From Ramlibacter sp. (GTDB lineage: Bacteria; Pseudomonadota; Gammaproteobacteria; Burkholderiales; Burkholderiaceae_C), in contig NZ_JAQGNQ010000010.1 in NCBI RefSeq assembly GCF_028291745.1, positions 1-64,000 on the forward strand: 64,000 nt of DNA, given 5' to 3'. Positions 4,437 to 62,449 of this stretch are shown here, piece by piece (the first letter of the stretch is position 1; the number at the start of each line of letters is the position of its first letter). The position numbers and the translations under genes are program-made. The notes below the pieces were generated by a model. That model was not told the DNA's origin and made no database searches. It was given only the letters and a program-made list of their open reading frames with translations.

Positions 4437-4449
4437 ACCCTTCACCTTC

Positions 4450-43474: not shown

Positions 43475-43486
43475 GCGCGATACGAC

Positions 43487-43501
43487 GCAAGCGCCATGCC
43501 G
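43487..43501 (-). promoter_or_regulatory. Inverted 15-mer with sigma-54-like form, in front of ccmA
   Basis: On the minus strand it reads CGGCATGGCGCTTGC, with GG and GC at the -24/-12 spacing of sigma-54 promoters. The same 15 bases occur in opposite orientation at 43697-43711. The predicted transcription start would lie only about two bases before the ccmA ATG, so promoter function toward ccmA is doubtful. Confidence 0.35.
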
Positions 43502-43638
43502 TCCTCGCATCGCTTCCCGCGCACGCGCAGCGGCCCCGCACCTTCCCAAAGGCAGGAAAAGCAGTGCCGGGATTCCTTGGGGCGAGACGGGAAGGCTTGC
43601 GTGCGGCACGCCTGGCGTGAGCGTGGCACGCCGCATCC

Positions 43639-44239: not shown

Positions 44240-45385
44240 CTACTGCCCCGACGCGATCCCCGGCACCGGATGGAACGCGCGCGAGATGTACGCCGCCACC
44301 GCCTCGATATCCGACGCCGGCATCACGCTTTTCCACGCCGGCATCGACGTGCCCGGCAGGCCCTCGCCGATGGCGCGCAGGATGCGCTCGCCGGTCATCC
44401 CCTTCATCTCCACCGCGCTGGTCAGGTCGCGCGGATGCGGCTCGAGGAAGCTGCCGATCCAGCCCTTGGACGTGCCGTCGCCCGCATGGCAGAAAGCGCA
44501 GTTCTTCTGGAACAGACGCTCACCCCGCAGCTCCTGCGCCGTCGCGGCCACCAGCACGGGCGGCGTGTCGTGCACGACGTAGTTGGCGGCCAGCTGCGCC
44601 TCGGGCCGGGTGGGCGAGCGCACCGGCACGCTGCCATCCGGCGCGGAGAAGGTGTGCGTCGCCGGCCGCACCGGATGCGCCGCGCCCTCGGGCGCCGAGC
44701 GCGGCACGTTTTGGTGGCAGCTGGTGCAGTACGCATCGCGCGGGAAGCTCACCGGCCGCGACTCCCAGACCTTGCCGGGATCGTTCACCTTGCCGTGGTC
44801 GTGGCAGGTGATGCAGGTGCTGCGGAACAGGCGCATGCCTTTCCGCTGGTCCGGCGTGAGCTGCTCCCACGGCGTGTCGATGGCGAGCTCGCCGCGCGCG
44901 AACGGGAAGGCCACGGCGTTGCGCTCGTGGTCGGGCCAGCCGTTTTCCTTGCTGTGATAGCGCGTGTTCCCAGCCTGCTTGTCCATGAACTCGTCGCGCA
45001 CGAAATCGGCGACCGCCGCCATCTCGGCCTCCGAGAGGATGCCGGTGAAGCCCTTCATCGCGGTGCCGGACTTGCCGTTGCGGATGGCAGCGATCATGGC
45101 CGCGCGCGACAGGTCCTGCGCCCGCGTGGCGCGGAAGTCGCGCGGCTTCGGGTCGAGGTAGCTGGTGGCCAGCGTCTTCGCGTCGCCCGAGTAGCCGTGG
45201 CAGAAGTAGCAGCGGAAGTTGTAGATCGCGCGCCCCTGCTCCACGGTGGCCGCGCTGGCGACCGGGGTCGCCGCGCGTGGCGCGCGTTCACCGCAGGCGG
45301 CCAGCAGCGCCATGCCGGCCACGACGAAGGCGGCGGCGGCGTGCCGCAGCCAGCCGGCCGCCCTACTGCCGGTTCCTCGCGACAT
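44240..45385 (-). CDS. Tetrahaem class I-type cytochrome c lipoprotein
   Basis: A 381-residue exported protein with lipobox VAGMALLAAC (Cys about residue 31), so anchored in the outer or inner membrane. Four haem sites follow: CYFCH (first domain), CITCH and CTSCH (middle, about 60 residues apart), and CAFCH (last domain). The first and last domains have the DPKPRDF/EPHPRDL and GxxGTxM features of class I cytochromes that also occur in the gene upstream. It overlaps that gene by 23 bases. Likely role: electron transfer at the membrane surface, perhaps linking to the quinol side. Confidence 0.82.
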   Translation of the reverse strand: MSRGTGSRAAGWLRHAAAAFVVAGMALLAACGERAPRAATPVASAATVEQGRAIYNFRCYFCHGYSGDAKTLATSYLDPKPRDFRATRAQDLSRAAMIAAIRNGKSGTAMKGFTGILSEAEMAAVADFVRDEFMDKQAGNTRYHSKENGWPDHERNAVAFPFARGELAIDTPWEQLTPDQRKGMRLFRSTCITCHDHGKVNDPGKVWESRPVSFPRDAYCTSCHQNVPRSAPEGAAHPVRPATHTFSAPDGSVPVRSPTRPEAQLAANYVVHDTPPVLVAATAQELRGERLFQKNCAFCHAGDGTSKGWIGSFLEPHPRDLTSAVEMKGMTGERILRAIGEGLPGTSMPAWKSVMPASDIEAVAAYISRAFHPVPGIASGQ

Positions 45386-46511
45386 CGCTTGCCCCCGGCT
45401 GGATGAAGGCACGGAACACGTACTCCGAGACGTTGGCGATTTCCTGCGGCGACAGCACCTTGTCCCAGGCAGGCATCTCGGAGCCGCGCCGCCCCGCCGA
45501 GGTGGCCGCGAAGATCACCGGCCGGTTCAGCATCGCGCGCGACGCGTCGCTCGTGAAGACCCGCGGCTTCGGGTTGATGAAGTACGCGCGTGGCCCGTGG
45601 CCGTCGCCCTTGAGCCCGTGGCAGGTGGCGCAGTTGGCGTCGTAGAACTTGTGGCCGGCGGCAGCGTCCCCGCGCAGGCCGGCGGGCAAGGGCAGCGAGA
45701 CGTCGGCCTGGGTCGCCGGCGCCGCGGCGGGTGCCCTGGGGCTGGCGGGCACGGCGGCCGCAAGCTGCGGCGCGGGGGCCGCCGCTGCATGGGCCGGCAG
45801 GTCGCGCGCATGGCTGCCCGGGATCCCTTGTATGCCGTCGGACCGCATGATCGCGCCGCGGATGTAATCGACCACCGCCGCCATGTCTTCGCCGCTCAGG
45901 CGGCTGGCATAGCCTTGCATGGCGGTGCCCGGGCGGCCGGCGGCGACGGCGGCCAGCATGCGTTCGCGGGTGAGTTCGAGTTTCGCCTGTGGCGAGGAGA
46001 AATCGCGCGGCGCCGGCTTCAGGTTGGCGCTGGCCCACATCGAGCCGGTGCCGCCGTCGCCGTGGCAGACCGAGCACACGCGCGCATAGATCTGGCGGCC
46101 GCGGCTGTCGTCGTTGACGCTGGGCCGCATGAAGGTGCCGCGCACGTAGTCGACCACCTGGCCGACCTGCTCGTCGCTCAATTGCGTGTGCCAGCCGACC
46201 ATCGCGCTGCCCGGCACGCCGTTCCCGACCGCGGCGAGCATGCGTTCGCGCGTCAGCTCCTGCGCAGACTGCGGGCTGGTGAAGTCGCGCGGCGGCGGCT
46301 TCAGGCTGGCGGACGCGCGGCTGTTGCCGTCGCCGGCATCGCCGTGGCACACCGAGCAGTAGTTGTGATAGAGCGCCGCCGGGGTCTGCTGCGCGGCGTC
46401 CGGGCCGCGGTTCCCCGCCAGCGCCGGGCGGGCGGCGGCGAAGGCCAGCAGGAACACGGCGGCAGTCATCCAGAGGCGGGCGGGACGCAGCGAACGCGAG
46501 CTTCTGAACAT
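45363..46511 (-). CDS. Trihaem cytochrome c made of three class I domains
   Basis: A 382-residue exported protein: signal peptide ending RPALAG, then domain 1 (CSVCH, KPPPRDFTSPQ, GVPGSAMVGW), domain 2 (CSVCH, KPAPRDFSSPQ, GRPGTAMQGY), an Ala/Pro-rich linker of about 50 residues, and domain 3 (CATCH, NPKPRVFTS, GSEMPAW). The repeated domains show internal duplication. GGGAG before the ATG at 46511 decides between two in-frame starts. A sigma-54-like promoter lies 29-44 bases upstream. Likely a periplasmic electron wire. Confidence 0.85.
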   Translation of the reverse strand: MFRSSRSLRPARLWMTAAVFLLAFAAARPALAGNRGPDAAQQTPAALYHNYCSVCHGDAGDGNSRASASLKPPPRDFTSPQSAQELTRERMLAAVGNGVPGSAMVGWHTQLSDEQVGQVVDYVRGTFMRPSVNDDSRGRQIYARVCSVCHGDGGTGSMWASANLKPAPRDFSSPQAKLELTRERMLAAVAAGRPGTAMQGYASRLSGEDMAAVVDYIRGAIMRSDGIQGIPGSHARDLPAHAAAAPAPQLAAAVPASPRAPAAAPATQADVSLPLPAGLRGDAAAGHKFYDANCATCHGLKGDGHGPRAYFINPKPRVFTSDASRAMLNRPVIFAATSAGRRGSEMPAWDKVLSPQEIANVSEYVFRAFIQPGASDVARNRQ

Positions 46512-46539
46512 GTCCACTCCCATGAGATAGCGGCTGGCC

Positions 46540-46555
46540 TGCAACTTCGATGCCA
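46540..46555 (-). promoter_or_regulatory. Sigma-54-like promoter, minus strand, for the class I cytochrome pair
   Basis: On the minus strand TGGCATCGAAGTTGCA matches TGGCACG-N4-TTGCA with two changes and exact GG-GC spacing. The predicted start lies about 18 bases before the ATG at 46511. It is back to back with the plus-strand promoter at 46569. Confidence 0.6.
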
Positions 46556-46568
46556 CCTGATCCGCGGG

Positions 46569-46584
46569 TGGCACGACGCTTGCG
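46569..46584 (+). promoter_or_regulatory. Sigma-54 promoter, plus strand, for the NHL lipoprotein
   Basis: TGGCACGACGCTTGCG matches the -24/-12 consensus TGGCACG-N4-TTGC in every defined position. The predicted start near 46596 leaves a 50-base leader before the ATG at 46646. It is the best sigma-54 match in the window. Confidence 0.7.
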
Positions 46585-46645
46585 TTTTCGCCCTCCGACC
46601 AACGGCCGGCAGGTGCCGGCACCCCAACCCGGAGACACCCCACAC

Positions 46646-47818
46646 ATGACCTCCCGATTCTCGAATCCGAGCCGCCGCTGCGCGCTTGTGGGAATGGCCG
46701 GAGTGCTGCTGGCAGCCTGTGCCGAGGCACCCAAGGTCTCATCCGCGAAGCCGGCAGAGATCCCCGCCTTTCCGCCGCCGCCGGAAGCCGCCCGCGTCTA
46801 CTGGGAGCGCAGCATTCGCAGCAGCGCCGACGTGGTGGCTGACGACAAGGACGGCACACTGCGCCGCATGGTCACCGGCGAGGGCCGCACCGGCCAGGCG
46901 CTGGACAAGCCTTATGGCATCGCGGCGCGTAATGGCAAGGTCTACGTCGGTGACACCGTCGCCCGCAACGTCGCCGTCTATGACCTGAACGCAAAGACCT
47001 TCACGCGCATCGGCGCCGACGATCCCGGCTCGCTGCGCATGCCCTTCGGCCTGGACCTCGACGACCGCGGCAACCTGTACGTGGTCGACGGCACGCTCAA
47101 GCGGGTGCACGTGTACGACGCCAGCGGCAAGTTTGTCCGCGCGATCGGCCAGGACATGCAATGGAGCCGGCCCGTGGGCGTGGCGATCGACAACGCGCGC
47201 AAGCGTCTGTACGTCGTGGACGCGGGCGGCGTGGACAAGCCGGACCACAAGGTGCGCGTGCTGGACCTCGACTCCGGCAAGCTGCTGTTCGAGATCGGCA
47301 GGCGCGGCGACGGCCCGGGCGAATTCAACCTGCCGCGCGATGTGGCCGTGGGCGCCGGCGGGCAGCTGTACGTGGTGGACGGCGGCAACTTCCGCGTGCA
47401 GGTGTTCGATGTCGACGGCAAGTTCGTGAGGACCTTTGGCGCCATCGGCCGGCAGAGCGGCCAGTTCTCGCGCCCGAAGGAAATCGCCAGCGACGCTGTC
47501 GGCAACCTGTACGTGGTCGACACGGCCTTCGGCAACTTCCAGATCTTCAATCCCGCCGGCCAGCTGTTGCTGGACGTGGGCAGCCGCGGCGCCAGCGACG
47601 GCCCGGCGAAGTTCATGCTGCCCTCGGGAATCGCAGTGGACAGTGACGGCCGCATCTACATGGCCGACCAGTTCTTCCGCAAGGTGGAGGTGTTCCGGCC
47701 GGCCGACCTGCCCGCGTCCGCCCGCTACGGCCAGCCCGCGGCCACTGCCGCAGTGACCCCCGCGCTGGTGCCGACGCCTGGCCAGCCCGCCGCCGCCGCG
47801 CCCTTGACGGCGCGCTGA
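46646..47818 (+). CDS. NHL-repeat (beta-propeller) lipoprotein
   Basis: A 390-residue protein with lipobox GVLLAAC (Cys25) and five to six NHL repeats from about residue 85 to 355, each with patterns such as RPVGVAIDNARKRLYVVDAG, LPRDVAVGAGGQLYVVDGGNFRVQVFD and RPKEIASDAVGNLYVVDTAFGNFQIFN. NHL propellers bind proteins or ligands and are often exported. NHL genes also accompany nanowire cytochrome genes such as omcS in Geobacter. The C-terminal tail is Ala/Pro-rich. A paralogue lies at 56395-57447. Role in cytochrome export or anchoring is inferred. Confidence 0.85.
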   Translation: MTSRFSNPSRRCALVGMAGVLLAACAEAPKVSSAKPAEIPAFPPPPEAARVYWERSIRSSADVVADDKDGTLRRMVTGEGRTGQALDKPYGIAARNGKVYVGDTVARNVAVYDLNAKTFTRIGADDPGSLRMPFGLDLDDRGNLYVVDGTLKRVHVYDASGKFVRAIGQDMQWSRPVGVAIDNARKRLYVVDAGGVDKPDHKVRVLDLDSGKLLFEIGRRGDGPGEFNLPRDVAVGAGGQLYVVDGGNFRVQVFDVDGKFVRTFGAIGRQSGQFSRPKEIASDAVGNLYVVDTAFGNFQIFNPAGQLLLDVGSRGASDGPAKFMLPSGIAVDSDGRIYMADQFFRKVEVFRPADLPASARYGQPAATAAVTPALVPTPGQPAAAAPLTAR

Positions 47819-48020: not shown

Positions 48021-48869
48021 ATGGGCTGGAAGCAAGGGGCCGCGCAGGCGAAGGCCGCAAGGGGAGTCGGAACACTGCTGATGGCCCTGGCCGTCGCCGT
48101 GATCGGAATGACGATGTACATGCCGGCGCACGCGCAGATCGCCAGCACCAGGCACAACCTGGGGGCCAGCGGCACCGGGATCAACAAGTTCAGCGGCACC
48201 ACCGAGATCTGCGTGTTCTGCCACACGCCGCACGGAGCGGACACCAGCGCCGCGGTGCCGCTCTGGAACCGCACGCTGCCGAACCCGAACACCTTCACCA
48301 CCTATGACAGCCTGGGCACTTCCACGCTGGACGGCAAGGTGGCGCCGGTCGGCTCCGTTTCCATTGCCTGCCTCTCGTGCCATGACGGCGTGACGTCGAT
48401 GAGCGCGGTGATCAACCAGCCGGGCTCCGGTCTCGTCACCGACTTCAACACCGGCACCTGGTCCGGCGCCAACCAGATCGGCGGCGTGCTCAAGGACGGC
48501 CTGATCACCAAGATCGGCCAGGACCTGCGCAATGACCACCCGATCGGCATCCAGTACGGCGGTGGCGGCCTGAGCACCACGGCCAGGACCGGCACGCTGA
48601 GGGACGGCGACTTCAAGATGCCGGCCAACGCCGAGATCAACGGCACCACCGTGTGGTGGGTCGACACCGAAGCGACCCCCAACGGCACGCGCCAGAAGAC
48701 CGACATGCTGCTGTACACGCGCGCCGCCGTCGCGGGCTACGTCGGCCAGACCGATCCGGAGCCCTTCGTCGAGTGCGCGAGCTGCCATGACCCGCACACC
48801 AGCAACACCACCTTCCTGCGCATCAAGAACGATGGCAGCGCCGTGTGCCTGTCCTGCCACGTGAAGTAA
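48021..48869 (+). CDS. OmcE-like tetrahaem cytochrome, putative extracellular nanowire subunit
   Basis: A 282-residue exported protein. After a signal peptide (to about AHAQ39) it has four haem sites: CVFCH 64-68, CLSCH 117-121, CASCH 252-256, CLSCH 276-280. Exactly four other histidines occur: His45 (TRHNL), His71 (CHTPH), His173 (RNDHPIG) and His259 (CHDPH), enough for bis-His ligation of all haems. The order CxxCHTPHG, PLWNR, YDS, CLSCHDG, DLRNDHPIG, CHDPH, FLR, CLSCH follows Geobacter OmcE, whose subunits stack into filaments. AAGGAG spacing selects the ATG at 48021. It has its own promoter and terminator, fitting high expression. The next gene is a prolyl isomerase, as in OmcE/OmcS regions. 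Filament formation is inferred, not shown. Confidence 0.82.
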   Translation: MGWKQGAAQAKAARGVGTLLMALAVAVIGMTMYMPAHAQIASTRHNLGASGTGINKFSGTTEICVFCHTPHGADTSAAVPLWNRTLPNPNTFTTYDSLGTSTLDGKVAPVGSVSIACLSCHDGVTSMSAVINQPGSGLVTDFNTGTWSGANQIGGVLKDGLITKIGQDLRNDHPIGIQYGGGGLSTTARTGTLRDGDFKMPANAEINGTTVWWVDTEATPNGTRQKTDMLLYTRAAVAGYVGQTDPEPFVECASCHDPHTSNTTFLRIKNDGSAVCLSCHVK

Positions 48870-48923: not shown

Positions 48924-48949
48924 GGGGCCTGATGGCCCCTTTTCTTTTT
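48924..48949 (+). terminator. Rho-independent terminator after the OmcE-like gene
   Basis: Stem GGGGCC (48924-48929), loop TGAT, stem GGCCCC (48934-48939), then TTTTCTTTTT. It separates the OmcE-like gene from the prolyl isomerase operon, or reduces read-through so the filament subunit is made in excess. Confidence 0.85.
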
Positions 48950-48966: not shown

Positions 48967-50025
48967 ATGTCCATGAAGACCCTTCCCTTCACCCGCGCCG
49001 CGCTGGCCACCTGCATGGCGCTCGCCACGCTGCCGATCGGCGCGGCCGCTGCCACCGCCGCGCCGGTCGCGGCGCAAGCCCCGGCACCGGCGTCCGCACG
49101 CTCGAATGCCGCGCCGTTCGCCAAGGTCGGCGAGACCGTGATCACGCACCAGGATTTCGACGCCGCGTTCGCGCAGGCCGCGCGCAGCAAGTTCTATCAC
49201 GGCAAGCCGCCGCAAGCCGATATCGCGAAGCTGCAGCGCGAGGTCGGCCAGAGTCTCGTGGACGACCTCCTGCTCGCCCGCGAAGCGAGGCGACGCAAGA
49301 TCGCGCCCGACGCCGGCGCCGTGCACAAGGTGATCGCCGGCTACGACGAGCGCTACAAGGACAGCGCGCAATGGAAGCTCGATCGCCCGCAGGTGGTGCC
49401 CGGGCTGGTGGCGAAGCTGGAACGTGACAGCATCATCGAGCAGCTCGCGACGCAGGTGAAGGCCGTCAGCGAGCCGACGACCGCGCAGATCGAACAGTAC
49501 TACCAGGCGCACAAGGACAAGTTCACCTCGCCCGAGCAGGTGCACCTGCAGATGATCCTGCTGAAGGTCGATCCCTCCTCGCCGCAGGCGCAGTGGGACG
49601 GTGCCCGGCAGGAAGCCGCGGCGATCGTCGGCCGCCTGAAAAAGGGCGCCTCCTTCGCCGAGCTCGCCAAGGTGCACTCGAGCGATCCTTCGGCCGAACG
49701 GGGCGGCGACCTGGGCTACCTCCACCAGGGCATGCTGCCCGAGCCGGCGCAGCAGGCCGTGGACCGGATGAAGCCGGGCGAGACCAGCGAGCCGGTCGCC
49801 GTGCTCGAAGGCGTGGCGGTGCTGCGCCTGCTGGAACGCAAGCTGCCCGTGCTGAACCCGCTGGCCGGCGTGCGCGATCGCGCGCGCGACCTGTACCTGC
49901 GCGGCAAGGGCGACGAGGCGTGGAACGCGCTGCTGGCAACGCTGCGCCGGGACAACCCCGTCACGCTCGACGAATCTCGCTTGTTGCCGCTGGCCAAGGC
50001 GGACGACGGCGCGGCCGCGCGCTAG
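48967..50025 (+). CDS. Parvulin-type (PpiC/SurA-like) periplasmic prolyl isomerase
   Basis: A 352-residue exported protein. The signal peptide ends around AAAATA, an N-terminal SurA-like helical domain follows (FAKVGETVITHQDFDAAFAQAA, LQREVGQSLVDDLLLAREARRR), and a PpiC domain covers about 195-300 (QVHLQMILLKVDP, LKKGASFAELAKVHSSDPSAERGGDLGYL, LPEPAQQAVDRMKPGETSEPV). It opens a co-directional run of 12 genes ending at 62306. Such isomerases accompany nanowire cytochromes in Geobacter, where they may help fold the haem protein during export. Start at 48967 or 48973. Confidence 0.88.
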   Translation: MSMKTLPFTRAALATCMALATLPIGAAAATAAPVAAQAPAPASARSNAAPFAKVGETVITHQDFDAAFAQAARSKFYHGKPPQADIAKLQREVGQSLVDDLLLAREARRRKIAPDAGAVHKVIAGYDERYKDSAQWKLDRPQVVPGLVAKLERDSIIEQLATQVKAVSEPTTAQIEQYYQAHKDKFTSPEQVHLQMILLKVDPSSPQAQWDGARQEAAAIVGRLKKGASFAELAKVHSSDPSAERGGDLGYLHQGMLPEPAQQAVDRMKPGETSEPVAVLEGVAVLRLLERKLPVLNPLAGVRDRARDLYLRGKGDEAWNALLATLRRDNPVTLDESRLLPLAKADDGAAAR

Positions 50026-50054: not shown

Positions 50055-51944
50055 ATGCAAACCGCCCGCCGCACCTGGCTCACCCTGCTCGCCGGTGTCG
50101 CCACCGCGGCCAGCGTGGCAGCACAGCAGCAGCAGCCGGCAGACTCCCCGCCGGCCGCCGCCCTGGCCCCGCCTGCCGACGGCGCCGACACCCCCGGCCG
50201 CGAATGGCGACTGCCGCCGGTGCGCGTGGGCGGCTCGCTCTCCTATGACCTGCGCGCCTCCCACGGCGGCCACGAAGGCAGTTCGCTGTCGCACCTGCTC
50301 ACCGCCAGCCTGGCAGCGCGCACCTACATCTTCCAGCCGTGGTTCGCCACCGTCGGCGGCACGCTCAACCTGAGTAGCGACTGGACCCGGCGCAGCTTCG
50401 ACGAGGGCAGCACGGCCTCGCTCAGCGAGAGCATCAAGGCCCGCGAGCAGTTCATCACCGGCACCGGGCGGCTCGACGTCTTTGCCCAAAGCCGCTTCCC
50501 GTTCGAGGCGCATGTCGAGCACAGCGACAGCCGGATCGGCAGCGGGGTGGCCTCCAGCCTCGACTTCCGCACGCAGAACATCGGATTTTCCCAGCGGTAT
50601 CGCCCGCTCTCCGGCGGCTTCGACCTGACGGGCGCTTACGACCACCGCGAGCAGAGCGGCCTGGGTTTCAACGCGAAGCAGGACACCGTCAGCGGCGACT
50701 TCGGCACGCGCTGGCGCGCCAACGAGCTCAATCTCGGGGCCTCCTTCAGCCGCGCCCGCAGCATCGGCCTGGACGACGACAGCAGCTTCGCCAGCCTGGT
50801 CGCGCGCCACCAGTACGCGCCGGGCAACGCCCTGTCGGTGAACACCACCGCGAACTGGACGCGCACGCAGGAGAGCCTGGCCACGGCGCCGAGCGACCTG
50901 AAGGTGCTGCAGGTGTCCAGCGTCGGCCTGTGGCACGGCGAGGGCTCGCCGCTGACGCTGACCGGCAGCGGCCGCTACCTGTCGCTGCGCGAGGGCCTGG
51001 CCGGCACCGCGCTCGATTCCGCCGGCGCCACCCTGGGCGCCAACTACGAGCTCAATCCCAATCTGCGCCTGACCGGCAATGCCGCCGTCAGCACGACGCG
51101 CAGCGGCGGCAGCGATGCCCTCGGTTTCACCGGCTCGGTCGGCGCTGCGTACCAGGGTGACACGGTGCCGCTGGCGGGCGGGCGCTACGACTGGTTCGCG
51201 AACGGCTCGGCGGGCGCGGCGGTGAACGACGGCACGCGACTGGAGCGCGAGCGGCAGACCTCGCTGAACCTGCAGCTCGGACACAGCTTCGCGCGCAACT
51301 GGGCGCTCGGCGCGCAATCGACGCTGGGCCTGAACGCGGCGCAGACGCTGTCCTGGAACGACAACCAGAGCAACCTGCACGCCGACGGCGAGCTGGGACT
51401 CGGCTCGTCGCGCACGCTGCTGAACACGCTGGCCGGCACCTGGCAGACCGGCGGCAGCGACCGCAGTGCCTATGCCCGCGCGAGCTACAGCGACGCGACG
51501 GAGCTGGGACGGGACAACCGGTTCCAGTTGTTCAATTTCCAGCTTTCCGGAAATTTCGAACTGGACAACCGCCGCTCCCTCGGCGGCGACCTCACCTGGC
51601 AGCGCACGTCGCAGCAGATCGACAGCGTGTCCACGGGGGGCGACGTGACCCTCCCGGGCCGCAGCAGCTCGCGCGCCGCCAGCGGCGAGATCACGTACCG
51701 CCACCAGCGGCCTTTCGGCATCGCGCGGCTGCGCTTCATCTCGCGCCTGAAGCTGGCCCAGGACGTGCTGAAACAACCTGGAATCCTGCTGTCCCTTCCC
51801 GATCGTGAGACCAGGCTCTGGGAAAACCGGCTCGACTACAGCATCGGCCGGATCGAAACCCAGCTGGTGCTGCGGGTCGCCGAAGTGGATGGCAGGCGAC
51901 GGGAATCCCTGATGTTCCGCGTGCAGCGCAGCTTTGGCGACTGA
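50055..51944 (+). CDS. Predicted outer-membrane beta-barrel, candidate cytochrome conduit or secretion pore
   Basis: A 629-residue protein with a signal peptide (MQTARRTWLTLLAGVATAASVAAQ), a Pro/Ala linker, then about 550 residues of alternating polar/aromatic beta-strands: SLSYDLRASHGG, LTASLAARTYIFQPWFATVGGTLNLSSDW, GGFDLTGAYDHREQSGLGF, ITYRHQRPFGIARLRFISRLKLAQDV, FRVQRSFGD. No haem motif or CXXC is present. It resembles porin partners of porin-cytochrome conduits (MtrB or OmbB roles) in size and setting, but I see no direct family signature. It is followed immediately by trihaem cytochromes that could sit inside or against it. Confidence 0.7.
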   Translation: MQTARRTWLTLLAGVATAASVAAQQQQPADSPPAAALAPPADGADTPGREWRLPPVRVGGSLSYDLRASHGGHEGSSLSHLLTASLAARTYIFQPWFATVGGTLNLSSDWTRRSFDEGSTASLSESIKAREQFITGTGRLDVFAQSRFPFEAHVEHSDSRIGSGVASSLDFRTQNIGFSQRYRPLSGGFDLTGAYDHREQSGLGFNAKQDTVSGDFGTRWRANELNLGASFSRARSIGLDDDSSFASLVARHQYAPGNALSVNTTANWTRTQESLATAPSDLKVLQVSSVGLWHGEGSPLTLTGSGRYLSLREGLAGTALDSAGATLGANYELNPNLRLTGNAAVSTTRSGGSDALGFTGSVGAAYQGDTVPLAGGRYDWFANGSAGAAVNDGTRLERERQTSLNLQLGHSFARNWALGAQSTLGLNAAQTLSWNDNQSNLHADGELGLGSSRTLLNTLAGTWQTGGSDRSAYARASYSDATELGRDNRFQLFNFQLSGNFELDNRRSLGGDLTWQRTSQQIDSVSTGGDVTLPGRSSSRAASGEITYRHQRPFGIARLRFISRLKLAQDVLKQPGILLSLPDRETRLWENRLDYSIGRIETQLVLRVAEVDGRRRESLMFRVQRSFGD

Positions 51945-51974: not shown

Positions 51975-52409
51975 ATGTCGAGATCGAGCAAGCGGATGCC
52001 CCCCGCCGCGCGCGTCGCCGCCGGCGTGGCGCTGTTCGGATGCGCGCTGTTTGCCGGCTTGCTGGCGCCGCAGGCGCACGCGGAATACGGCGACGTGGTC
52101 ATCAACAACTACTCCGACCAGGCGGGCATGCGGCCGGTGGTGTTCCCGCACTGGTTCCACCGCATCCGCTACCGCTGCAAGGTGTGCCACGCAGACCTGG
52201 GCTTCAAGTTCAAGGCCGGCGGCAACGAGATCAACATGGTCAAGGTGATCGACGGCCAGTTCTGCGGCGCCTGCCACAACGGCGAGGTCGCGTGGAACAT
52301 CGAGAACTGCAACATGTGCCACTCGGCCAAGCCCGGCACGCCGACCCAGGTGCACGAGAGCACGACCAACTCGCTGGTCGCGCCGGCCGCCACGGAGAAG
52401 AAGCCATGA
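51975..52409 (+). CDS. Trihaem c7-type periplasmic cytochrome
   Basis: A 144-residue exported cytochrome. The signal peptide ends QAHAE; the c7 domain has VVFPHWFHRIRYRCKVCH (haem 1 with upstream axial His residues), FCGACHNGEVAW (haem 2) and CNMCHSAKPG (haem 3). This is the c(7)-type trihaem domain pattern with small haem-packed core. It is a close paralogue of the gene at 55986-56360. Its stop overlaps the next start. Probable role: periplasmic electron carrier to the outer-membrane barrel. Confidence 0.88.
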   Translation: MSRSSKRMPPAARVAAGVALFGCALFAGLLAPQAHAEYGDVVINNYSDQAGMRPVVFPHWFHRIRYRCKVCHADLGFKFKAGGNEINMVKVIDGQFCGACHNGEVAWNIENCNMCHSAKPGTPTQVHESTTNSLVAPAATEKKP

Positions 52410-53554
52410 GCGCCCGCACCGCACTGGCGGCGCTCGCGGCCGCGGCCCTGGCCTCGTTCGCACTGGCGGCCGCGGCGCAGGATCTCGCGGCCGGCAAGGG
52501 CGTCTACGAAGGCGGTTGCGTCGCCTGCCACGGCACCGGCGTGCTGGGCGCGCCCAAGGTGGGCGATGCCGCTGCCTGGAAGCCGCGCGCGGCGCAGGGA
52601 CTCGCCACCCTGCTGGCCAGCGCCAGGGCCGGCAAGGGTGCGATGCCAGCCAGGGGGGCCATGCCGGGACTGACCGACGGGCAATTGCAGAATGCGATCG
52701 CCTACATGGTGTCGCAGTCCGCCGGCGTGCCGGCGGCGCCGGCCAGGCCGGCTGCGGCCCTCGCAGCCGCGAAAGCGCCTGCTTTGGCGGCTGCGCCCGC
52801 GGCCAAGGCTGCCGCCGCCGCGCCGGCCGCAGCGAGCACCGCGGGGGCGGCCAAGCCCATGGCTGCGGCTGCAGTGGCCCCCGTGCCTGCCGTGGTGGCG
52901 GCTCCTGCTGCCCCGGTGCTCACTGCTCCCAGGGCCCCTGCGGCGCCGCCAGCAGCTGCGGCGACGATGACGGCTGCCCTCCAGCCCGCCGGCGCCCAAG
53001 CCGGCGTCAACACCTTCAACCGTTTGCTGCGGCCACAACTGCGCAACCGGCCGCCGGCGGAGGACGGCATCCACGATCCCGGCAACGACGCGACGCTGGC
53101 GCTGCAGCCGCCGACCCTGGCCTTCAACGAGCTCACGCGCAGCAACGCCGGCAACCGCGTCGACTGGGTCAAGTCGCTGCACGACGGCAAGATCAATCCG
53201 CGCGCCGACCGGCTCGACCCCAAGGCGGTGCCGGCAGTGATGGACCTGAACATAGTGCGCGAGGTGAAGGGCTCCATGCCGGATGTGGTGTACCCGCACA
53301 AGCAGCACACGGAATGGCTGGACTGCTCCAACTGCCACCCGGCCATCTTCAAGCCGCAAAAGGGCGCGAACCAGATCAGCATGGCCAGCATCCTGCTCGG
53401 GCAGCAGTGCGGGGTATGCCACGGCAAGGTTGCCTTCCCGGTGTCGGAGTGCCGCCTGTGCCACTCCAGGCCCAAGGCGACCGCTACCGCGGCGGTCGTC
53501 AGCACCCCGCCGGCGGAGAGCGCGGCCGGCCAGACCCAGGCCGCTCCGCGGTGA
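52406..53554 (+). CDS. Fusion of a class I cytochrome c and a trihaem c7 domain through an Ala/Pro linker
   Basis: A 382-residue exported protein with four haems. Residues 25-105 form a c5-like domain (YEGGCVACHGTGVLGAPKVGDAAAWKPR) resembling the cytochrome at 43755. A linker of about 90 residues is almost only Ala, Pro and Val, long enough to span the periplasm or tether domains. A ~60-residue segment (HDPGNDATLALQPP, RVDWVKSLHDGKINPRAD) leads into the c7 domain with CSNCH, CGVCH and CRLCH. The part from HDPGND onward parallels the whole protein at 55360-55989. It looks like a gene fusion joining a soluble carrier to a c7 wire. Confidence 0.87.
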   Translation: MSARTALAALAAAALASFALAAAAQDLAAGKGVYEGGCVACHGTGVLGAPKVGDAAAWKPRAAQGLATLLASARAGKGAMPARGAMPGLTDGQLQNAIAYMVSQSAGVPAAPARPAAALAAAKAPALAAAPAAKAAAAAPAAASTAGAAKPMAAAAVAPVPAVVAAPAAPVLTAPRAPAAPPAAAATMTAALQPAGAQAGVNTFNRLLRPQLRNRPPAEDGIHDPGNDATLALQPPTLAFNELTRSNAGNRVDWVKSLHDGKINPRADRLDPKAVPAVMDLNIVREVKGSMPDVVYPHKQHTEWLDCSNCHPAIFKPQKGANQISMASILLGQQCGVCHGKVAFPVSECRLCHSRPKATATAAVVSTPPAESAAGQTQAAPR

Positions 53555-53579: not shown

Positions 53580-54491
53580 ATGAACATCAAGTCCTACCGC
53601 TGCCACGCTGCCGTGGCACTCGTCCTGCTGCAACTGGCTGGCGAGCCGCGCGCGCAGCCCGGCACCGCCGCCGCAGCGGTCGTGTCGCCGCAAGTCCTCG
53701 CGCAAAAGAGCGCGATGGTCGACAAGGTGCTGAACGAGTCGCCGGTGGCGGCGCGCGTCCTGAGCAGCGGCAACGAGCAGGCGCGATGGCACTTCGGCCA
53801 CGCCCGCGAACTGGCCGCGCACGCCGCGGCGTTGCGCACCGACGGCCTGCTGCGCGCCGCCGACGGCCTGCTGAACGAAGCGATCTGGGAGATCAGCCGC
53901 GCGCAGCAGCTGGTGCCCGACCCCGGCACGCAGCAGGCCGGCGAGCGCTCCCGCTACGCGCAACTGGAAGACAGCGTCGCCGCGCTCAAGCGCACCGCAC
54001 AGATCGCCCTGCCCCCGGCTGCCGCCACGCAGGGCGAAAGCCGCGACATGATGCTGGCCCGCGCCGACCTGCTGGCCGACCAGGCCGGCCAGCTGGCGCG
54101 CGCCGACCGCTACATCGAGGCCAACAAGCAGCTCGATGCGGCGCTGATGCTGCTGCTGCGGGACGCCTCGGCGCGGCTGGCGGGCCACACGATCGTGTAC
54201 GACGTGCGCTTCGCGGATCGCCACGAAGAGTTCGCGTTCGAGCTGGAGCGCCATCGCAGCTTCGAGCGGCTGGTGCCGCTGGCGCTGCTGGAGTTCAGGC
54301 CGGCGCCGGAAGCCCGGGCGCTGGCCGAGCGCAACGTGACGCAGGCGCGCGAACTGCGCGAGCGCGCCGAGGCGCAGTTCGCCCGCAACCCGCTCGCGGC
54401 CATCAAGGACATCAGCGACGGCACCGACGCCTTGCGGCGGGCGCTGCAGGCCGCCGGCCTGGTGGTGCCGCAGACGATGGAATCCCGATGA
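53580..54491 (+). CDS. Exported helical protein of unknown function, first of two paralogues
   Basis: A 303-residue protein with a signal peptide (MNIKSYRCHAAVALVLLQLAGEPRAQ) and an almost entirely helical mature part rich in Ala, Arg, Glu and Gln (LRAADGLLNEAIWEISRAQQLV, ADQAGQLARADRYIEANKQLDAALMLLLRD). No haem motif, no cysteine after the signal. It shares the endings EEFAFELERHR and AAIKDISDGTDALRRALQAAGLVVP with its neighbour (DEYAYEVDRND and SAIRTLEDSTRELVKAIRAAGVYIP). GGAGG precedes the ATG. The TPR-like helices suggest a scaffold or export adaptor; the function is unknown. Confidence 0.72.
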   Translation: MNIKSYRCHAAVALVLLQLAGEPRAQPGTAAAAVVSPQVLAQKSAMVDKVLNESPVAARVLSSGNEQARWHFGHARELAAHAAALRTDGLLRAADGLLNEAIWEISRAQQLVPDPGTQQAGERSRYAQLEDSVAALKRTAQIALPPAAATQGESRDMMLARADLLADQAGQLARADRYIEANKQLDAALMLLLRDASARLAGHTIVYDVRFADRHEEFAFELERHRSFERLVPLALLEFRPAPEARALAERNVTQARELRERAEAQFARNPLAAIKDISDGTDALRRALQAAGLVVPQTMESR

Positions 54492-55363
54492 GCACCTTCC
54501 TCTCCCCGCGCAACGTGCGCGGCGCCGCCATTTCGCTCGTCCTGTGCCTCGCCGCGGGCATGGCCTGCGCCCAGCCGCGGATGTCGATCGACCGGGAGCA
54601 GCTGGAACGCAAGCTGCAATCGACCGGCACGCTGATCGAGACCTCCTCGGGCGCCAGGCAGATCGAGGCCAGCGGCGTAGTCGAAGCGGCAGCCCGGCGC
54701 GCCGACGCGCGTGAACTGCACCAGCGCGCCCGTGTCGCGCTGACCGCCGGCGAGCTGGAGAAGGCGGCGAAACTCCTGGACGAATCCTCCCGCGCGATGT
54801 TCGACGGCGTGCGCCTGGCCGCCCCGTCGCAGGTGACCGAAGCCAAGCAGCGCGCCGACTACCAGGCGCGGCTGGACTCCACGCGCGCGCTGATCGAGGC
54901 GCAAAAGCGCATCTCCGCCGAGAAGGGCGGCACCCGCGCGGCCGAACCGTCGCGGCAGGCCGAGGCCCTGATCGGCGAGGCGGACAAGCTGGCGGCAGCC
55001 GGCCGGCTGACCGACGCACGCCACACCCTGGACCAGGCGTACCTCACGGTGAAGGCAGCGATCGGCAGCCAGCGCGAGGGGGATACGCTCGTGCGCTCGC
55101 TGAACTTCGCCACGCCGGCCGACGAATACGCCTACGAAGTCGACCGCAACGACACCCACCGCATGCTGGTGCAGATGCTGCTGAAGGACCGCCATGGCGA
55201 TGCGATGGTGGACCAGGCAGTGGCCGCCTCCGGCAAGCTGCGCACGCAGGCGGAGGGCGAAGCGTCCCGCAACGACCACCGGAGCGCGATCCGCACGCTG
55301 GAGGACTCCACGCGCGAACTGGTGAAGGCAATCCGCGCCGCCGGTGTCTACATCCCGGGATGA
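54488..55363 (+). CDS. Exported helical protein of unknown function, second paralogue
   Basis: A 291-residue protein with a signal peptide (to about GMACAQ) and a helical, coiled-coil-prone mature part (VVEAAARRADARELHQRARVALTAGELEKAAKLLDESS, LIGEADKLAAAGRLTDARHTLDQAYLTVKAAIG). The repeat units resemble TPR-like hairpins. It overlaps the preceding paralogue and the following c7 cytochrome by four bases each, so the pair is tightly tied to the cytochromes. It may hold or guide cytochromes in the periplasm; this is a guess from context. Confidence 0.72.
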   Translation: MSTFLSPRNVRGAAISLVLCLAAGMACAQPRMSIDREQLERKLQSTGTLIETSSGARQIEASGVVEAAARRADARELHQRARVALTAGELEKAAKLLDESSRAMFDGVRLAAPSQVTEAKQRADYQARLDSTRALIEAQKRISAEKGGTRAAEPSRQAEALIGEADKLAAAGRLTDARHTLDQAYLTVKAAIGSQREGDTLVRSLNFATPADEYAYEVDRNDTHRMLVQMLLKDRHGDAMVDQAVAASGKLRTQAEGEASRNDHRSAIRTLEDSTRELVKAIRAAGVYIPG

Positions 55364-55989
55364 CCATGGCCCGTGGCTGCCTGCCTGCAAGCACCCTGCG
55401 ACGCGCAGTTGCGCGCCAGCGCGCAGGCGTGCGGTGGCTGCTCGCGCTGTTGCTGGCAGCGATGGGCCTGGCGGCACTGGCACAGAACCGGGGCTGGGTG
55501 CGGATCGCGGCTGACGGTCTGCACGATCCGCGCAGTCCGGCGCTGGGCGTGCTGCAGGAACCGGGCGAGGCGCTGGCGGCGCTGCCGCACGACGCAGTCG
55601 GCAACCAGGTCCGCTGGGTCAAGGCACTGGACGAGGGCGCGATCCAGCCGCGCACCAACATCCTGCCGGAGACCCGGGTCAACCTGCGGCTGTCCGAGGT
55701 GCTGCTGAAGAACACCGGCGAGATGGCGATGGTGCGCTTCCCGCATCGCCAGCACACCGCCTGGCTCGATTGCAGCAACTGCCACGGCGCCGCGGGCCTG
55801 TTCGAGCAGCAGGCCGGCGCGACGAAGATCAACATGATGCTGATCCTGTCCGGGGAGAAATGCGGGCTGTGCCACGGGGCGGTCGCGTTCCCGCTGACCG
55901 AATGCAAGCGCTGCCACAGCGTGGAGCGCGGCAGCCCCGAGCACCAGGCCTTCGGCAACGCGCTGGTGCGCGAGGCGACGCCTCCGTGA
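55360..55989 (+). CDS. Trihaem c7-type cytochrome, membrane-anchored or secreted
   Basis: A 209-residue protein. An N-terminal hydrophobic stretch (VRWLLALLLAAMGLAALAQ) after about 25 basic residues is a signal peptide or anchor. It continues LHDPRSPALGVLQEPGEAL, RWVKALDEGAIQPRTN and a c7 domain FPHRQHTAWLDCSNCH, KCGLCHGAVAFPLTECKRCH. It aligns along its length with the C-terminal half of the protein at 52406-53554. Overlaps both neighbours by four bases. Confidence 0.85.
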   Translation: MTMARGCLPASTLRRAVARQRAGVRWLLALLLAAMGLAALAQNRGWVRIAADGLHDPRSPALGVLQEPGEALAALPHDAVGNQVRWVKALDEGAIQPRTNILPETRVNLRLSEVLLKNTGEMAMVRFPHRQHTAWLDCSNCHGAAGLFEQQAGATKINMMLILSGEKCGLCHGAVAFPLTECKRCHSVERGSPEHQAFGNALVREATPP

Positions 55990-56360
55990 ACCTCGTGCCC
56001 TGCGCACTCGTGCTGGCGCTCGGGCTGGGCGTCGCCATGCCGGCGGCGGCGGAGTACGCGGACGTGGTCCTGGACCGCGCGTCCACGAAGAACGGCATGC
56101 GGCCGGTGGTGTTTCCGCACTGGTTCCACCGCATCCGCTTTCGCTGCAAGGTGTGCCATTCGGAACTGGGCTTCAAGATGCGGGCAGGGTCCAATGCGAT
56201 CCAGATGAACGACATCATCGAAGGGCGCTTTTGCGGCATGTGCCACAACGGTCAGATCGCCTGGACACCGGACCGCTGCGACCTGTGCCACTCCGGCAAG
56301 CCGGGGGTCGCGCCGGGCATCTACGGCGCGTCGGAAACGAAGGGGCCGGGCAAATGGTGA
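55986..56360 (+). CDS. Trihaem c7-type periplasmic cytochrome, paralogue of 51975-52409
   Basis: A 124-residue exported cytochrome starting at GTG 55986 (overlap GTGA). The signal peptide ends MPAAAE. Haem sites CKVCH, CGMCH and CDLCH lie in the same sequence frame as the 51975 gene: GMRPVVFPHWFHRIRFRCKVCHSELGFKMRAGSNAIQMNDIIEGRFCGMCHNGQIAW. Near identity of spacing shows recent duplication of this carrier within the operon. Confidence 0.88.
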   Translation: MNLVPCALVLALGLGVAMPAAAEYADVVLDRASTKNGMRPVVFPHWFHRIRFRCKVCHSELGFKMRAGSNAIQMNDIIEGRFCGMCHNGQIAWTPDRCDLCHSGKPGVAPGIYGASETKGPGKW

Positions 56361-56394: not shown

Positions 56395-57447
56395 ATGAGC
56401 GCGCCGCAACTGCTGCTTTGTGCCGTCGTGCTGCTGCTCGTCGGCTGCGCCAGCGAACCCATGGTGATGCAGCTGGATGCGCCGCAGAATGCCAGCGCCC
56501 GCCTGTTCCCGCCGCCGCAAACGCAGGAGGAGCCGCGCTACCGTTACCTCGGCCAGCTGCTGGGCGAGAGCAACTTCAAGCCCAAGGACGGCGGCGGCCG
56601 CAAGCTGCTGGCCTGGATCGCCGGCCTGGGCGAAGAGCGCGAGACGCCGGTGACGTTGCAGCGGCCGCAGTCGGGCGTGGTGGACGCTGCCGGCCGCGTG
56701 CTCGTCACTGATGTCAGCCGCAACGCGATCTACGTGTTCGACGAGGCGGCGGGCAAGCTCGATGTGTGGGAGCGGGCCTCGCGGCGCGAACGCTTCGCCG
56801 CGCCGATCGCGATCGCGCTGGGACGCGGCGGCGAGTTCCTGGTGAGCGACGCCGAACTCGGTCGCGTGTTCCGGCTCGCTGGCGACGGCACGCCGCTGGG
56901 CGAGTTCGGCGCCGGCGTGCTGCGGCGGCCCACCGGCATCGCCCGCGACGCGCAGCGCGGCCGCGTGTTCGTCGCCGACACGCACTCGCACGACATCAAG
57001 GTGTTCGACGACGACGGCAAGCTGCTGGCGACCTGGGGACACCGCGGCGAAGGCCCGGGCGAACTGAACTACCCGACGCACCTGGCCTTCGCGGACGGCA
57101 CGCTGCTGGTGACCGACGCGATGAACGCGCGCGTGCAGGGCTTCGACCGCGAAGGCAAGCCGGTGTTGCGCATCGGCCAGCGCGGGCTGTACGTGGGCAA
57201 CCTGGTGCGGCCCAAGGGCGTGGCCGCCGACGATGAAGGCAACGTCTATGTCGTCGAATCCATGCACGACAGCCTGCTGGTGTACGACCGCGAGGGCCGC
57301 TTCCTGATGGCGCTGGGCGGCACCGACGTGGAGGCGAGCAAGTTCTACCTGCCCGCCGGGGTCTGGGTCGATGCGCGCAATCGCGTGTTCGTCGCCGACA
57401 TGTTCAATGGCCGCGTCGCGGTGTTCCAGTTCCTGGGCGGCAAGTGA
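56395..57447 (+). CDS. NHL-repeat (beta-propeller) lipoprotein, paralogue of 46646-47818
   Basis: A 350-residue protein with lipobox VLLLVGC (Cys18). About six NHL repeats follow from residue 95: RPQSGVVDAAGRVLVTDVSRNAIYVFD, RPTGIARDAQRGRVFVADTHSHDIKVFDDDGK, YPTHLAFADGTLLVTDAMNARVQGFDREGK, RPKGVAADDEGNVYVVESMHDSLLVYDREG, LPAGVWVDARNRVFVADMFNGRVAVFQ. It directly precedes the 11-haem cytochrome, as the other NHL gene precedes the OmcE-like one, so each cytochrome may have a dedicated propeller partner. Confidence 0.87.
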   Translation: MSAPQLLLCAVVLLLVGCASEPMVMQLDAPQNASARLFPPPQTQEEPRYRYLGQLLGESNFKPKDGGGRKLLAWIAGLGEERETPVTLQRPQSGVVDAAGRVLVTDVSRNAIYVFDEAAGKLDVWERASRRERFAAPIAIALGRGGEFLVSDAELGRVFRLAGDGTPLGEFGAGVLRRPTGIARDAQRGRVFVADTHSHDIKVFDDDGKLLATWGHRGEGPGELNYPTHLAFADGTLLVTDAMNARVQGFDREGKPVLRIGQRGLYVGNLVRPKGVAADDEGNVYVVESMHDSLLVYDREGRFLMALGGTDVEASKFYLPAGVWVDARNRVFVADMFNGRVAVFQFLGGK

Positions 57448-59930: not shown

Positions 59931-60895
59931 AGCACGTGCTGCAACGCCTCGCCTCGCCTCGGCTCACGCTCGCCGGCTTCGCGCTGCTGGTGGGGGTGAT
60001 CGTCGCCGGCCTGCACTGGCCCGCCGCGCCAACGCTGGCGTTCGTCGCCCCGCTCGCGCTCCTGGGCCTCAACCTGGCCGCCGCGATCGCGATGCGGCCC
60101 GCCTTGCGGCGCGGCGGCCTCGGCCTGTTCCACTTCGCACTGCTGGCGTTCCTGCTGCTCGCGGGCTGGGGGCGGCTGACGCACTTCGATGGCCGGGTCG
60201 AGGTTGCGCAGGATGGCTTCTTCGATCCTGCGCTGGTGGAAGTCACCGGCCAGGGTCCGTGGCACGGCGAGGCGTGGAAGCGCCTGCAGTTCCGCCAGGG
60301 CGGCTGGGAGGTGGACTACCGGCCGGGCGTCAAGCGCGCCCACACCCGCAGCCTGGCGTGGCTGCCGGGCGAGCAGGAACCGCGCACGGTGGGCGACGAC
60401 ACCGCGCTGATCCTCGCCGGCTACCGCTTCTACACGACGCCCAACAAGGGCTTCGCGCCGCTGCTGGCCTGGCAGGCGACCGGCGCCGAGACTATGCAGG
60501 GAGTGCTGCACATGCCCAGCTACCCCATGTTCGACTGGAAGCAGGAGCAGGCCTGGACCGCGCCCGACGGCACCGCGCTGCGCTTCTGGCTGCGCATCGA
60601 GCGGCCGATCGCGCAGGAGGTGGCCTGGACGCTGTCGACCAAGGACGTGCCCGCGCTGCTGGTCGTGGAAGCCGCCGGCGTCCGGCACGAACTGCGCCCG
60701 GGCGGCGCGCTCACCCTGCCATCCGGCACGCTGCGCTACGAGCGGCTGCTGGGATGGATGGGCTATCGCATCTTCTACGATCCCACGCTGATCCCGCTGC
60801 TGGCGGCGGCGCTGCTGGGCGTCGCCGGGCTCGCGTGGCATTTGTGGCGGCGGATCGGCCGGCTGGCACCCGGCTTGCAAGGAGTCCTGGCATGA
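59927..60895 (+). CDS. ResB/Ccs1-like cytochrome c assembly protein
   Basis: A 322-residue membrane protein: N-terminal RLASPRLTLAGFALLVGVIVAG and two further helices, a periplasmic part of about 180 residues (VTGQGPWHGEAWKRLQFRQGGWEVDY, YRFYTTPNKGFAPLLAWQ), and a C-terminal helix (LIPLLAAALLGVAGLAWHLW). This is the ResB layout in a short version (typical ResB 450 or more). It partners the next gene, CcsA/ResC-like. System II normally works alone, so its presence beside System I genes points to a dedicated role for this locus. Confidence 0.8.
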   Translation: MKHVLQRLASPRLTLAGFALLVGVIVAGLHWPAAPTLAFVAPLALLGLNLAAAIAMRPALRRGGLGLFHFALLAFLLLAGWGRLTHFDGRVEVAQDGFFDPALVEVTGQGPWHGEAWKRLQFRQGGWEVDYRPGVKRAHTRSLAWLPGEQEPRTVGDDTALILAGYRFYTTPNKGFAPLLAWQATGAETMQGVLHMPSYPMFDWKQEQAWTAPDGTALRFWLRIERPIAQEVAWTLSTKDVPALLVVEAAGVRHELRPGGALTLPSGTLRYERLLGWMGYRIFYDPTLIPLLAAALLGVAGLAWHLWRRIGRLAPGLQGVLA

Positions 60896-62423: not shown

Positions 62424-62449
62424 CGTCACGCTCCCCACCGGGAGCAACA

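What the first reader, a model, noticed from the sequence alone, without database searches (positions are those of the whole stretch)
48021..48869. OmcE-like tetrahaem nanowire subunit in a betaproteobacterium
The sequence shows four CXXCH sites and exactly four further histidines (45, 71, 173, 259) in the order and wording of Geobacter OmcE (CHTPHG, PLWN, CLSCHDG, DLxNDHPI, CHDPH, FLR, CLSCH). OmcE subunits polymerise into extracellular cytochrome filaments. The gene has its own promoter and terminator and is next to a prolyl isomerase and an NHL gene, partners also seen beside omcE/omcS. This would place a cytochrome-filament system in a lineage where it is not well described.
Basis: partly seen in the sequence, partly recalled or inferred. 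Interest (0 to 1): 0.9.

Follow-up and report, generated by a model that had tools for sequence, protein, structure and literature searches.

The report
OmcE-like cytochrome of Uet cluster
This gene encodes a four-haem protein related to the building block of a known bacterial 'nanowire', and it sits in a known gene cluster (Uet) thought to carry electrons across the cell surface; the cluster is already reported in related bacteria, so it is a good but not unprecedented lead.

Summary
The gene is real and belongs to the OmcE family: 282 aa, four CXXCH, exactly four further His; best solved match the OmcE filament chain 7tfs (E 5.9e-26; family profile 2.9e-36). In a 75-row alignment all eight His are kept but for one His in one row. 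It is not an isolated nanowire gene. It is uetA of a Uet ('undecahaem electron transfer') cluster: tetrahaem protein, prolyl isomerase, 28-strand barrel, four trihaem domains, NHL propeller and 11-haem protein, in an order shared with many Proteobacteria, in part with a 'Ca. Tenderia' contig. Papers already report Uet in Tenderiales, Gallionella and Leptothrix, so 'a lineage where it is not well described' is only partly right. What I add: UetA is an OmcE homologue, and UetJ begins with a second, complete OmcE-like domain. The four Uet papers I could search do not mention OmcE in their running text; the founding paper is not held. This suggests an OmcE-type filament docked on UetJ at a barrel conduit. 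Polymerisation is not shown (the haem-free fold prediction of UetA failed), and direction of flow is unknown. New member of a known kind.

The parts
48021..48869 (+). uetA: OmcE-family tetrahaem cytochrome, 282 aa, Sec-like signal peptide with AHA-Q cleavage site by eye
48924..48939 (+). terminator-like hairpin plus T-run between uetA and uetB
   Evidence: found in 4 of 66 relatives, so not conserved
48967..50025 (+). uetB: SurA_N plus PPIC-type prolyl isomerase, probable assembly chaperone
   Evidence: ORF listed from 48898, start at 48967 chosen by eye
50055..51944 (+). uetC: 28-strand outer-membrane beta-barrel
51975..52409 (+). uetD: trihaem cytochrome c7-type
52406..53554 (+). uetE: monohaem cytochrome c domain fused to trihaem c7 domain (4 CXXCH)
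53580..54491 (+). hypothetical protein without Pfam match, conserved in part of the clusters
54488..55363 (+). candidate uetF (very weak TPR match, E=0.055)
55360..55989 (+). trihaem c7-type cytochrome (uetG-like)
55986..56360 (+). second trihaem c7-type cytochrome (uetG-like)
56395..57447 (+). NHL beta-propeller with lipobox LLVGC by eye (uetH/uetI-like)
57447..59930 (+). uetJ: undecahaem cytochrome (11 CXXCH); residues 1 to about 260 are a complete OmcE-like tetrahaem domain
46646..47818 (+). NHL beta-propeller with lipobox LLAAC by eye, upstream of uetA
44240..45412 (-). cytochrome with cbb3-type domains, 4 CXXCH, divergent from uetA
45363..46697 (-). cytochrome with three monohaem domains, divergent from uetA
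59927..60895 (+). ResB-like cytochrome c biogenesis protein
60892..61725 (+). cytochrome c assembly protein (CcsA/CcmC type)
61722..62306 (+). TPR protein (CcmH-type TPR model matched below its cut-off)

Best explanation
The gene is uetA of a Uet extracellular electron transfer cluster. SHOWN by sequence: UetA is an OmcE homologue with four c-haem sites and all eight His for bis-His ligation; UetJ has 11 haem sites and begins with a complete OmcE-like domain; the barrel, trihaem cytochromes, isomerase and NHL gene stand in the same order in most of the loci examined, mainly Gammaproteobacteria (here including Betaproteobacteria); the barrel is predicted with high confidence. INFERRED: periplasmic trihaem cytochromes pass electrons to and from a conduit in the 28-strand barrel; UetA is exported, folded with help of UetB and the NHL lipoproteins, and polymerises as OmcE does, a His of one subunit ligating a haem of the next; UetJ caps or anchors that chain through its OmcE-like domain and links it to the conduit. 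The direction of flow (mineral, humic or electrode uptake against disposal) is open. My confidence by step: OmcE-family membership 0.95; uetA of a Uet cluster 0.93; surface electron transfer 0.8; polymerises 0.6; docks on UetJ 0.35.
For: OmcE match E=5.9e-26, profile 2.9e-36. Eight His conserved: 7 columns 75 of 75, H71 74 of 75, no other column with more than 10 His. UetJ to OmcE 3.8e-25 single, 1.3e-35 profile; 11 CXXCH in the window protein and in 10 of 10 relatives used. Gene order in 80 named loci: isomerase match directly behind uetA in 76 of 80; with enough flank held, barrel 61 of 66, trihaem 62 of 64, UetJ 51 of 57. The 'Ca. Tenderia' contig L107 runs OmcE-PPI-barrel-c7a-c7b, tying the cluster to the organisms in which Uet was named. 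Barrel pLDDT 89.3, 28 strands; MtrB 6r2q_B has the highest TM-score of the 50 rows shown, 0.42. All Paired_CXXCH (3) and trihaem-domain (4) hits of the own genome lie in this cluster and no MtrB match is found.
Against: No structural proof of a filament: the UetA model is poor (mean pLDDT 60.8) and Foldseek gave no match at E <= 0.001, OmcE not among the 47 listed. UetA is only 33.5% identical to OmcE over 212 columns and carries 78 residues between H173 and C252 against 51 in OmcE, an insert that might block stacking. In the tree OmcE and 9yuq group with UetJ domains rather than with UetA (93/82, short of the program's mark of 95, and on long branches that it warns about). The role of OmcS/OmcE filaments in Geobacter is itself disputed (PMC11077965, PMC11021709: starts of abstracts in the listing). 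Two UetA-like genes stand outside clusters (L073, L085), and three clusters show no barrel match (L117, L119, L123). The TPR assignment of UetF is very weak.
Confidence: 0.62

Rival explanations
1. UetA is a monomeric (or UetJ-bound) extracellular tetrahaem protein, the terminal contact of the Uet conduit, and does not polymerise; the OmcE fold was kept for haem packing only.
For: UetJ carries a complete OmcE-like domain fused to seven haems, so the fold can work as a non-filament module; the UetA insert between H173 and C252; no structure of a UetA filament known to me.
Against: All eight His are kept, and in OmcE one haem is ligated by a His of the next subunit (PMC12203936, passages), so one of these His would lack its partner haem in a monomer; the isomerase and NHL genes beside it.
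Confidence: 0.28
2. UetA is an ordinary soluble periplasmic tetrahaem cytochrome (c3 or STC-like) unrelated to surface electron transfer.
For: Pfam and NCBIfam give only the generic doubled-CXXCH model above cut-off.
Against: Best solved matches are OmcE and 9yuq; STC (1m1p) only reaches E=5.4. The cluster has a 28-strand barrel and an 11-haem protein, and UetA is called extracellular in print (PMC10734462, passages).
Confidence: 0.05
3. The cluster serves outward electron disposal (Fe(III), humics, electrodes) rather than electron uptake as proposed for Tenderiales. (This concerns direction only and can hold together with the best explanation.)
For: No RuBisCO large-chain match in the own genome (99.36% complete), so no Calvin-cycle electroautotrophy of the kind proposed for Tenderiales.
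Against: Absence of RuBisCO does not exclude uptake by a heterotroph; no Fe(III)-reduction data; the published readings of Uet seen here favour uptake or Fe(II) oxidation.
Confidence: 0.4

Closest known systems
Uet (undecahaem electron transfer) cluster uetABCDEFGHIJ of Tenderiales, also reported in Gallionella and, by UetJ and its porin, mobilis-type Leptothrix
   Same: Tetrahaem UetA, isomerase UetB, barrel UetC, trihaem cytochromes, NHL protein and 11-haem UetJ; gene order matched to a 'Ca. Tenderia' contig for the first five genes, where that contig ends.
   Different: One NHL gene before uetJ instead of two, plus one NHL gene upstream of uetA; UetE is fused to a monohaem domain; divergent monohaem-domain cytochromes upstream; no RuBisCO match in the genome.
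Geobacter sulfurreducens OmcE filament (PDB 7tfs)
   Same: Homologous over nearly the whole chain; four CXXCH and eight ligand His align.
   Different: 33.5% identity; 27 more residues between H173 and C252; set in a barrel-undecahaem cluster; polymerisation not shown.
PDB 9yuq chain N, 'putative multiheme cytochrome c' (16 chains in the entry)
   Same: Same tetrahaem family, E=4e-36 with the UetA profile.
   Different: 218 aa without the insert; organism and assembly not known to me.
osc (omcS-companion) assembly cluster of Geobacter (recalled; a search, listed no such paper)
   Same: As recalled: a prolyl isomerase, a channel-like part and a beta-propeller help nanowire assembly.
   Different: Not compared by sequence here.
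MtrCAB / MtoAB porin-cytochrome conduits
   Same: Large barrel with multihaem cytochromes; MtrB has the highest TM-score (0.42) of the 50 rows shown for UetC.
   Different: No MtrB/PioB family match in the genome; UetC has 28 predicted strands; no decahaem open frame in the window.

Membership tests
OmcE tetrahaem family | Sequence homology over the haem core | tested here: met
   E=5.9e-26 single, 2.9e-36 profile
OmcE tetrahaem family | Four CXXCH sites | tested here: met
   4 in the window protein and in 79 of 80 named relatives; the exception L078 has a broken frame in its record
OmcE tetrahaem family | Eight axial His aligned with OmcE | tested here: met
   in the 75-row alignment 7 columns are 75 of 75 and H71 is 74 of 75
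OmcE tetrahaem family | Same fold and haem chain as 7tfs | tested here: inconclusive
   haem-free AlphaFold model pLDDT 60.8, no Foldseek match
OmcE nanowire | Homopolymer with a haem ligated by a His of the next subunit | not testable with these tools
   no complex or haem modelling on hand; the feature of OmcE is from passages of PMC12203936 and PMC9473688
OmcE nanowire | Extracellular location | not tested
   signal peptide seen by eye only; UetA called extracellular in PMC10734462
Uet cluster | Undecahaem UetJ | tested here: met
   11 CXXCH
Uet cluster | Tetrahaem UetA and prolyl isomerase UetB side by side | tested here: met
Uet cluster | Beta-barrel porin UetC | tested here: met
   28 strands by my count of the DSSP list (a 3-residue strand left out), pLDDT 89.3
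Uet cluster | Three trihaem cytochromes UetDEG | tested here: met
   four trihaem domains over cut-off, so one more than named in print
Uet cluster | TPR protein UetF | tested here: inconclusive
   TPR_2 E=0.055 in 54488-55363; that UetF is the TPR gene is my reading of PMC5371394
Uet cluster | Two NHL proteins UetH and UetI | tested here: inconclusive
   one NHL gene before uetJ and one upstream of uetA
Uet cluster | Shared gene order with Tenderiales | tested here: met
   for the first five genes only: 'Ca. Tenderia' contig L107 runs OmcE-PPI-barrel-c7a-c7b and then ends
Uet cluster | Function in extracellular electron uptake | not testable with these tools
   no expression or electrode data on hand

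The most novel reading that the evidence does not exclude
Uet is a nanowire system with a built-in base: UetA polymerises like OmcE, and the OmcE-like first domain of UetJ, which keeps all eight ligand His, takes the place of one subunit, so that the filament is joined by the same inter-subunit haem ligation to an 11-haem protein at the barrel UetC. OmcE-type filaments would then belong to electron-uptake or iron-oxidising Proteobacteria as much as to Geobacter. Paralogues in relatives with a fifth haem, or without the His at position 71, would be tip or chain-ending subunits.
Probability: 0.3. Interest if true: 0.75.

Novelty: new member of a known kind. Interest (0 to 1): 0.5.

Why it matters
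How an extracellular cytochrome filament is joined to the outer-membrane conduit is, to my knowledge, not settled. A conserved cluster that holds an OmcE homologue, an undecahaem protein with an OmcE-like domain, a 28-strand barrel and probable assembly helpers gives one genetic unit in which that can be tested, in named betaproteobacterial strains (Ramlibacter, Dechloromonas). It also ties Uet, known from cathode and iron-oxidation work, to the nanowire field.

Tried and rejected
Haem-free AlphaFold of UetA with 75 sequences: pLDDT 60.8, haem segments mostly under 50, Foldseek best E 1.1; no evidence either way. Sequence profile of the barrel against the PDB: nothing significant, best E 0.15; its model was informative instead. 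Conserved terminator behind uetA as a sign of high subunit expression: 4 of 66 relatives, 0 expected from shuffles, 0 of 69 behind uetC; dropped as a general feature. Sigma-70 promoter: none found. tRNA-borne island: no tRNA in the window. RuBisCO as a sign of electroautotrophy: no match. Tree: UetJ domains form one group (100/100); the place of OmcE is unsure through long branches.

Rows left out and rules of counting: L078 (broken frame) was left out of all alignments and but is in the counts. A2 used 75 rows: the window protein, 13 of the 15 relatives of A1, and 61 of the 80 named loci. A3 used the window barrel and 67 of the 81 barrel relatives. A4 used the window UetJ and all 10 relatives that passed my filter; one of these (L047) is cut at its N-terminus by the edge of my stretch. 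The tree used 60 rows, among them 15 of the 80 named loci as UetA. One search drops loci with too little flank. The isomerase was counted three ways: 65 of 77 and 67 of 80 by rules that wrongly drop matches whose first bases overlap the end of uetA; 76 of 80 when that is mended (missing L073, L085, L104, L112).

Eddie 2022 (PMC9599434), Baquero 2023 (PMC10330847) and the OmcE structure paper (PMC9357133) are not held, so it is not excluded that they already say that UetA is OmcE-like.

Full report
Observation. The ORF at 48021-48869 (+) encodes 282 aa with four CXXCH and exactly eight His. phmmer against PDB sequences gives OmcE 7tfs_A at 5.9e-26 and 9yuq_N, a 'putative multiheme cytochrome c' with 16 chains in one entry, at 4.8e-23; the next cytochrome match is at 0.085 (repeat proteins named SAKe6 and RPB score in between through summed short stretches). 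A profile of 16 orthologues gives 2.9e-36 and 4e-36, with OmcS only at 0.025. Above cut-off Pfam knows the protein only as doubled-CXXCH.

Conservation. In a 75-row alignment (A2) seven of the eight His columns are 75 of 75 and H71 is 74 of 75 (Q in L073); no other column has more than 10 His. Eight conserved His for four haems is what bis-His ligation needs. Two papers state that in OmcE a haem is ligated by a His of the adjacent subunit (PMC12203936 and PMC9473688, passages); since all eight His align with OmcE, that residue should be among them, but I could not tell which it is.

Surroundings. tblastn of 18 window genes against 18 stretches from 14 genomes of the same order, and then against 80 named loci, shows one main order: (NHL) - tetrahaem - isomerase - barrel - trihaem - monohaem/trihaem - one or two hypothetical - trihaem (one or two) - NHL - 11-haem, and also ResB - CcsA - TPR. 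An isomerase match stands directly behind uetA in 76 of 80; where enough flank is held, the barrel is found in 61 of 66, trihaem proteins in 62 of 64, the hypothetical proteins in 57 of 60, NHL in 52 of 56 and the 11-haem protein in 51 of 57; an NHL gene lies directly upstream in 41 of 71. L073 and L085 are second, stand-alone copies in genomes that also have the cluster (L071, L079). They include Ramlibacter, Ideonella, Polaromonas, Rhodoferax, Herbaspirillum, Dechloromonas, Gallionella, Sideroxyarcus, Chromatiales, 'Ca. Tenderia', Thalassotalea, Motiliproteus and Magnetococcales; Nitrospirae and Caldilineales MAG contigs (L088, L104) may be binning errors (inference). Within the own family any OmcE-like match occurs in 6 of 200 genomes sampled and in neither of the two genus-mates listed (G097, G198); in the order in 21 of 399. 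So the cluster is accessory.

Identification. The set corresponds to the Uet cluster. PMC10734462 (passages) describes in six Gallionella an undecahaem UetJ, an extracellular tetrahaem UetA, three periplasmic trihaem UetDEG, isomerase UetB and NHL UetHI, with the barrel UetC in four of the six, after Eddie et al. 2022 on Tenderiales. PMC13386937 (passages) finds UetJ and its porin in the mobilis-type Leptothrix group; PMC12575090 (passages) names uetABCDEFGHIJ as the uptake cluster of Tenderiales; PMC5371394 (passages) reports an undecahaem and three trihaem genes of 'Ca. Tenderia electrophaga' at the cathode, the trihaem genes among its most highly expressed. 'OmcE' does not occur in the main text of PMC10734462, PMC13386937 or PMC5371394, and in PMC12575090 only in a reference title. 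Eddie 2022 itself is not held. Searches for OmcE with betaproteobacteria (4 of 4 papers listed) or Burkholderiales (20 of 60 listed) showed no title or abstract start that describes this gene; nothing wider is claimed.

UetJ. The window protein 57447-59930 and the 10 relatives used (one cut at its N-terminus by my stretch) have 11 CXXCH each. Its N-terminal 260 residues match OmcE over nearly its whole chain (3.8e-25 alone; 1.3e-35 as a profile), keep all eight His, and are 38.7% identical to OmcE against 33.5% for UetA. UetJ is thus an OmcE-like tetrahaem domain fused to seven more haems, a natural candidate for a filament base or cap (inference).

UetC. AlphaFold with 68 sequences gives a 28-strand barrel at mean pLDDT 89.3 (strand count mine). 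Foldseek finds outer-membrane barrels, cobalamin and siderophore receptors first by E-value; of the 50 rows shown the highest TM-score is MtrB of the Mtr complex (0.42, rank 10). A TM-score of 0.42 says large barrel, not same family. No MtrB family match exists in the own genome, and all its doubled-CXXCH (3) and trihaem (4) hits lie in this cluster, so Uet looks like its only conduit of this kind, as far as these three models see.

Mechanism. Shown: homology, haem sites, ligands, gene order, barrel prediction. Inferred: electrons pass between periplasmic trihaem cytochromes, UetJ and a barrel-held conduit; UetA is exported and most likely polymerises. Helpers beside it (isomerase, NHL lipoproteins) fit an assembly role; a similar role for such proteins in the Geobacter osc cluster is recalled, and a search for it listed no such paper. 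Against: the UetA model failed, UetA has a 78-residue stretch between H173 and C252 against 51 in OmcE, and the tree places OmcE nearer to UetJ domains than to UetA, at 93/82 and on long branches. Direction of flow is open; the genome has no RuBisCO match, so Calvin-cycle electroautotrophy is unlikely.

Paralogues. Relatives carry further OmcE-like genes. One class has five CXXCH (L008, L010, L013, L040, L043, and the copies in L069, L072, L125). Another, in loci of Dechloromonas, Rhodocyclaceae and unassigned beta- or proteobacterial MAGs, has four CXXCH and lacks the His at position 71 (7 rows with Q, R or T; the eighth, L142, has three CXXCH in my reading and no letters at the first three ligand columns). 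The own genome shows neither.

Verdict. Observation confirmed. Interpretation partly supported: an OmcE-family protein, but as uetA of a known cluster already seen in betaproteobacteria. The OmcE link of UetA and UetJ is the useful new lead.

Noticed in passing
41470-43636 (-), 59927-62306 (+) and about 62430-64000 (+): Cytochrome c maturation genes lie on both sides of the uet cluster: CcmB, a CcmC-type and an ABC ATPase gene upstream, ResB/CcsA/TPR directly downstream and a CcmF-like open frame running off the window (the CcmF and CcmA names are by eye).
   Followed up: partly
57447-59930: UetJ starts with a complete OmcE-like tetrahaem domain that matches OmcE in line.
   Followed up: yes
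L008, L010, L013, L040, L043, L069, L072, L125: A second OmcE-like class with a fifth CXXCH is found in relatives but not in the own genome.
   Followed up: partly
upstream copies in L116, L124, L131, L133, L135, L138, L139; also L073: Paralogues in which the His of CHTPH (position 71) is Q, R or T, although the other ligands are kept.
   Followed up: partly
L051:1498-3978 and about 4159-6600 (-): Two tandem uetJ copies of nearly equal similarity to the window UetJ in one relative, G244.
   Followed up: no
52406-53554: UetE-like gene fuses a monohaem cytochrome c domain, an Ala/Pro-rich linker and a trihaem domain.
   Followed up: no
L104, L088: A Caldilineales MAG contig carries a uetA that groups with 'Ca. 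Tenderia', and a Nitrospirae MAG contig carries most of the cluster; possible binning errors.
   Followed up: no
L078:10001-10857: The uetA record of Ramlibacter montanisoli has a broken frame in this assembly; left as it is.
   Followed up: no
53580-54491: Conserved protein of the cluster without any Pfam match.
   Followed up: no
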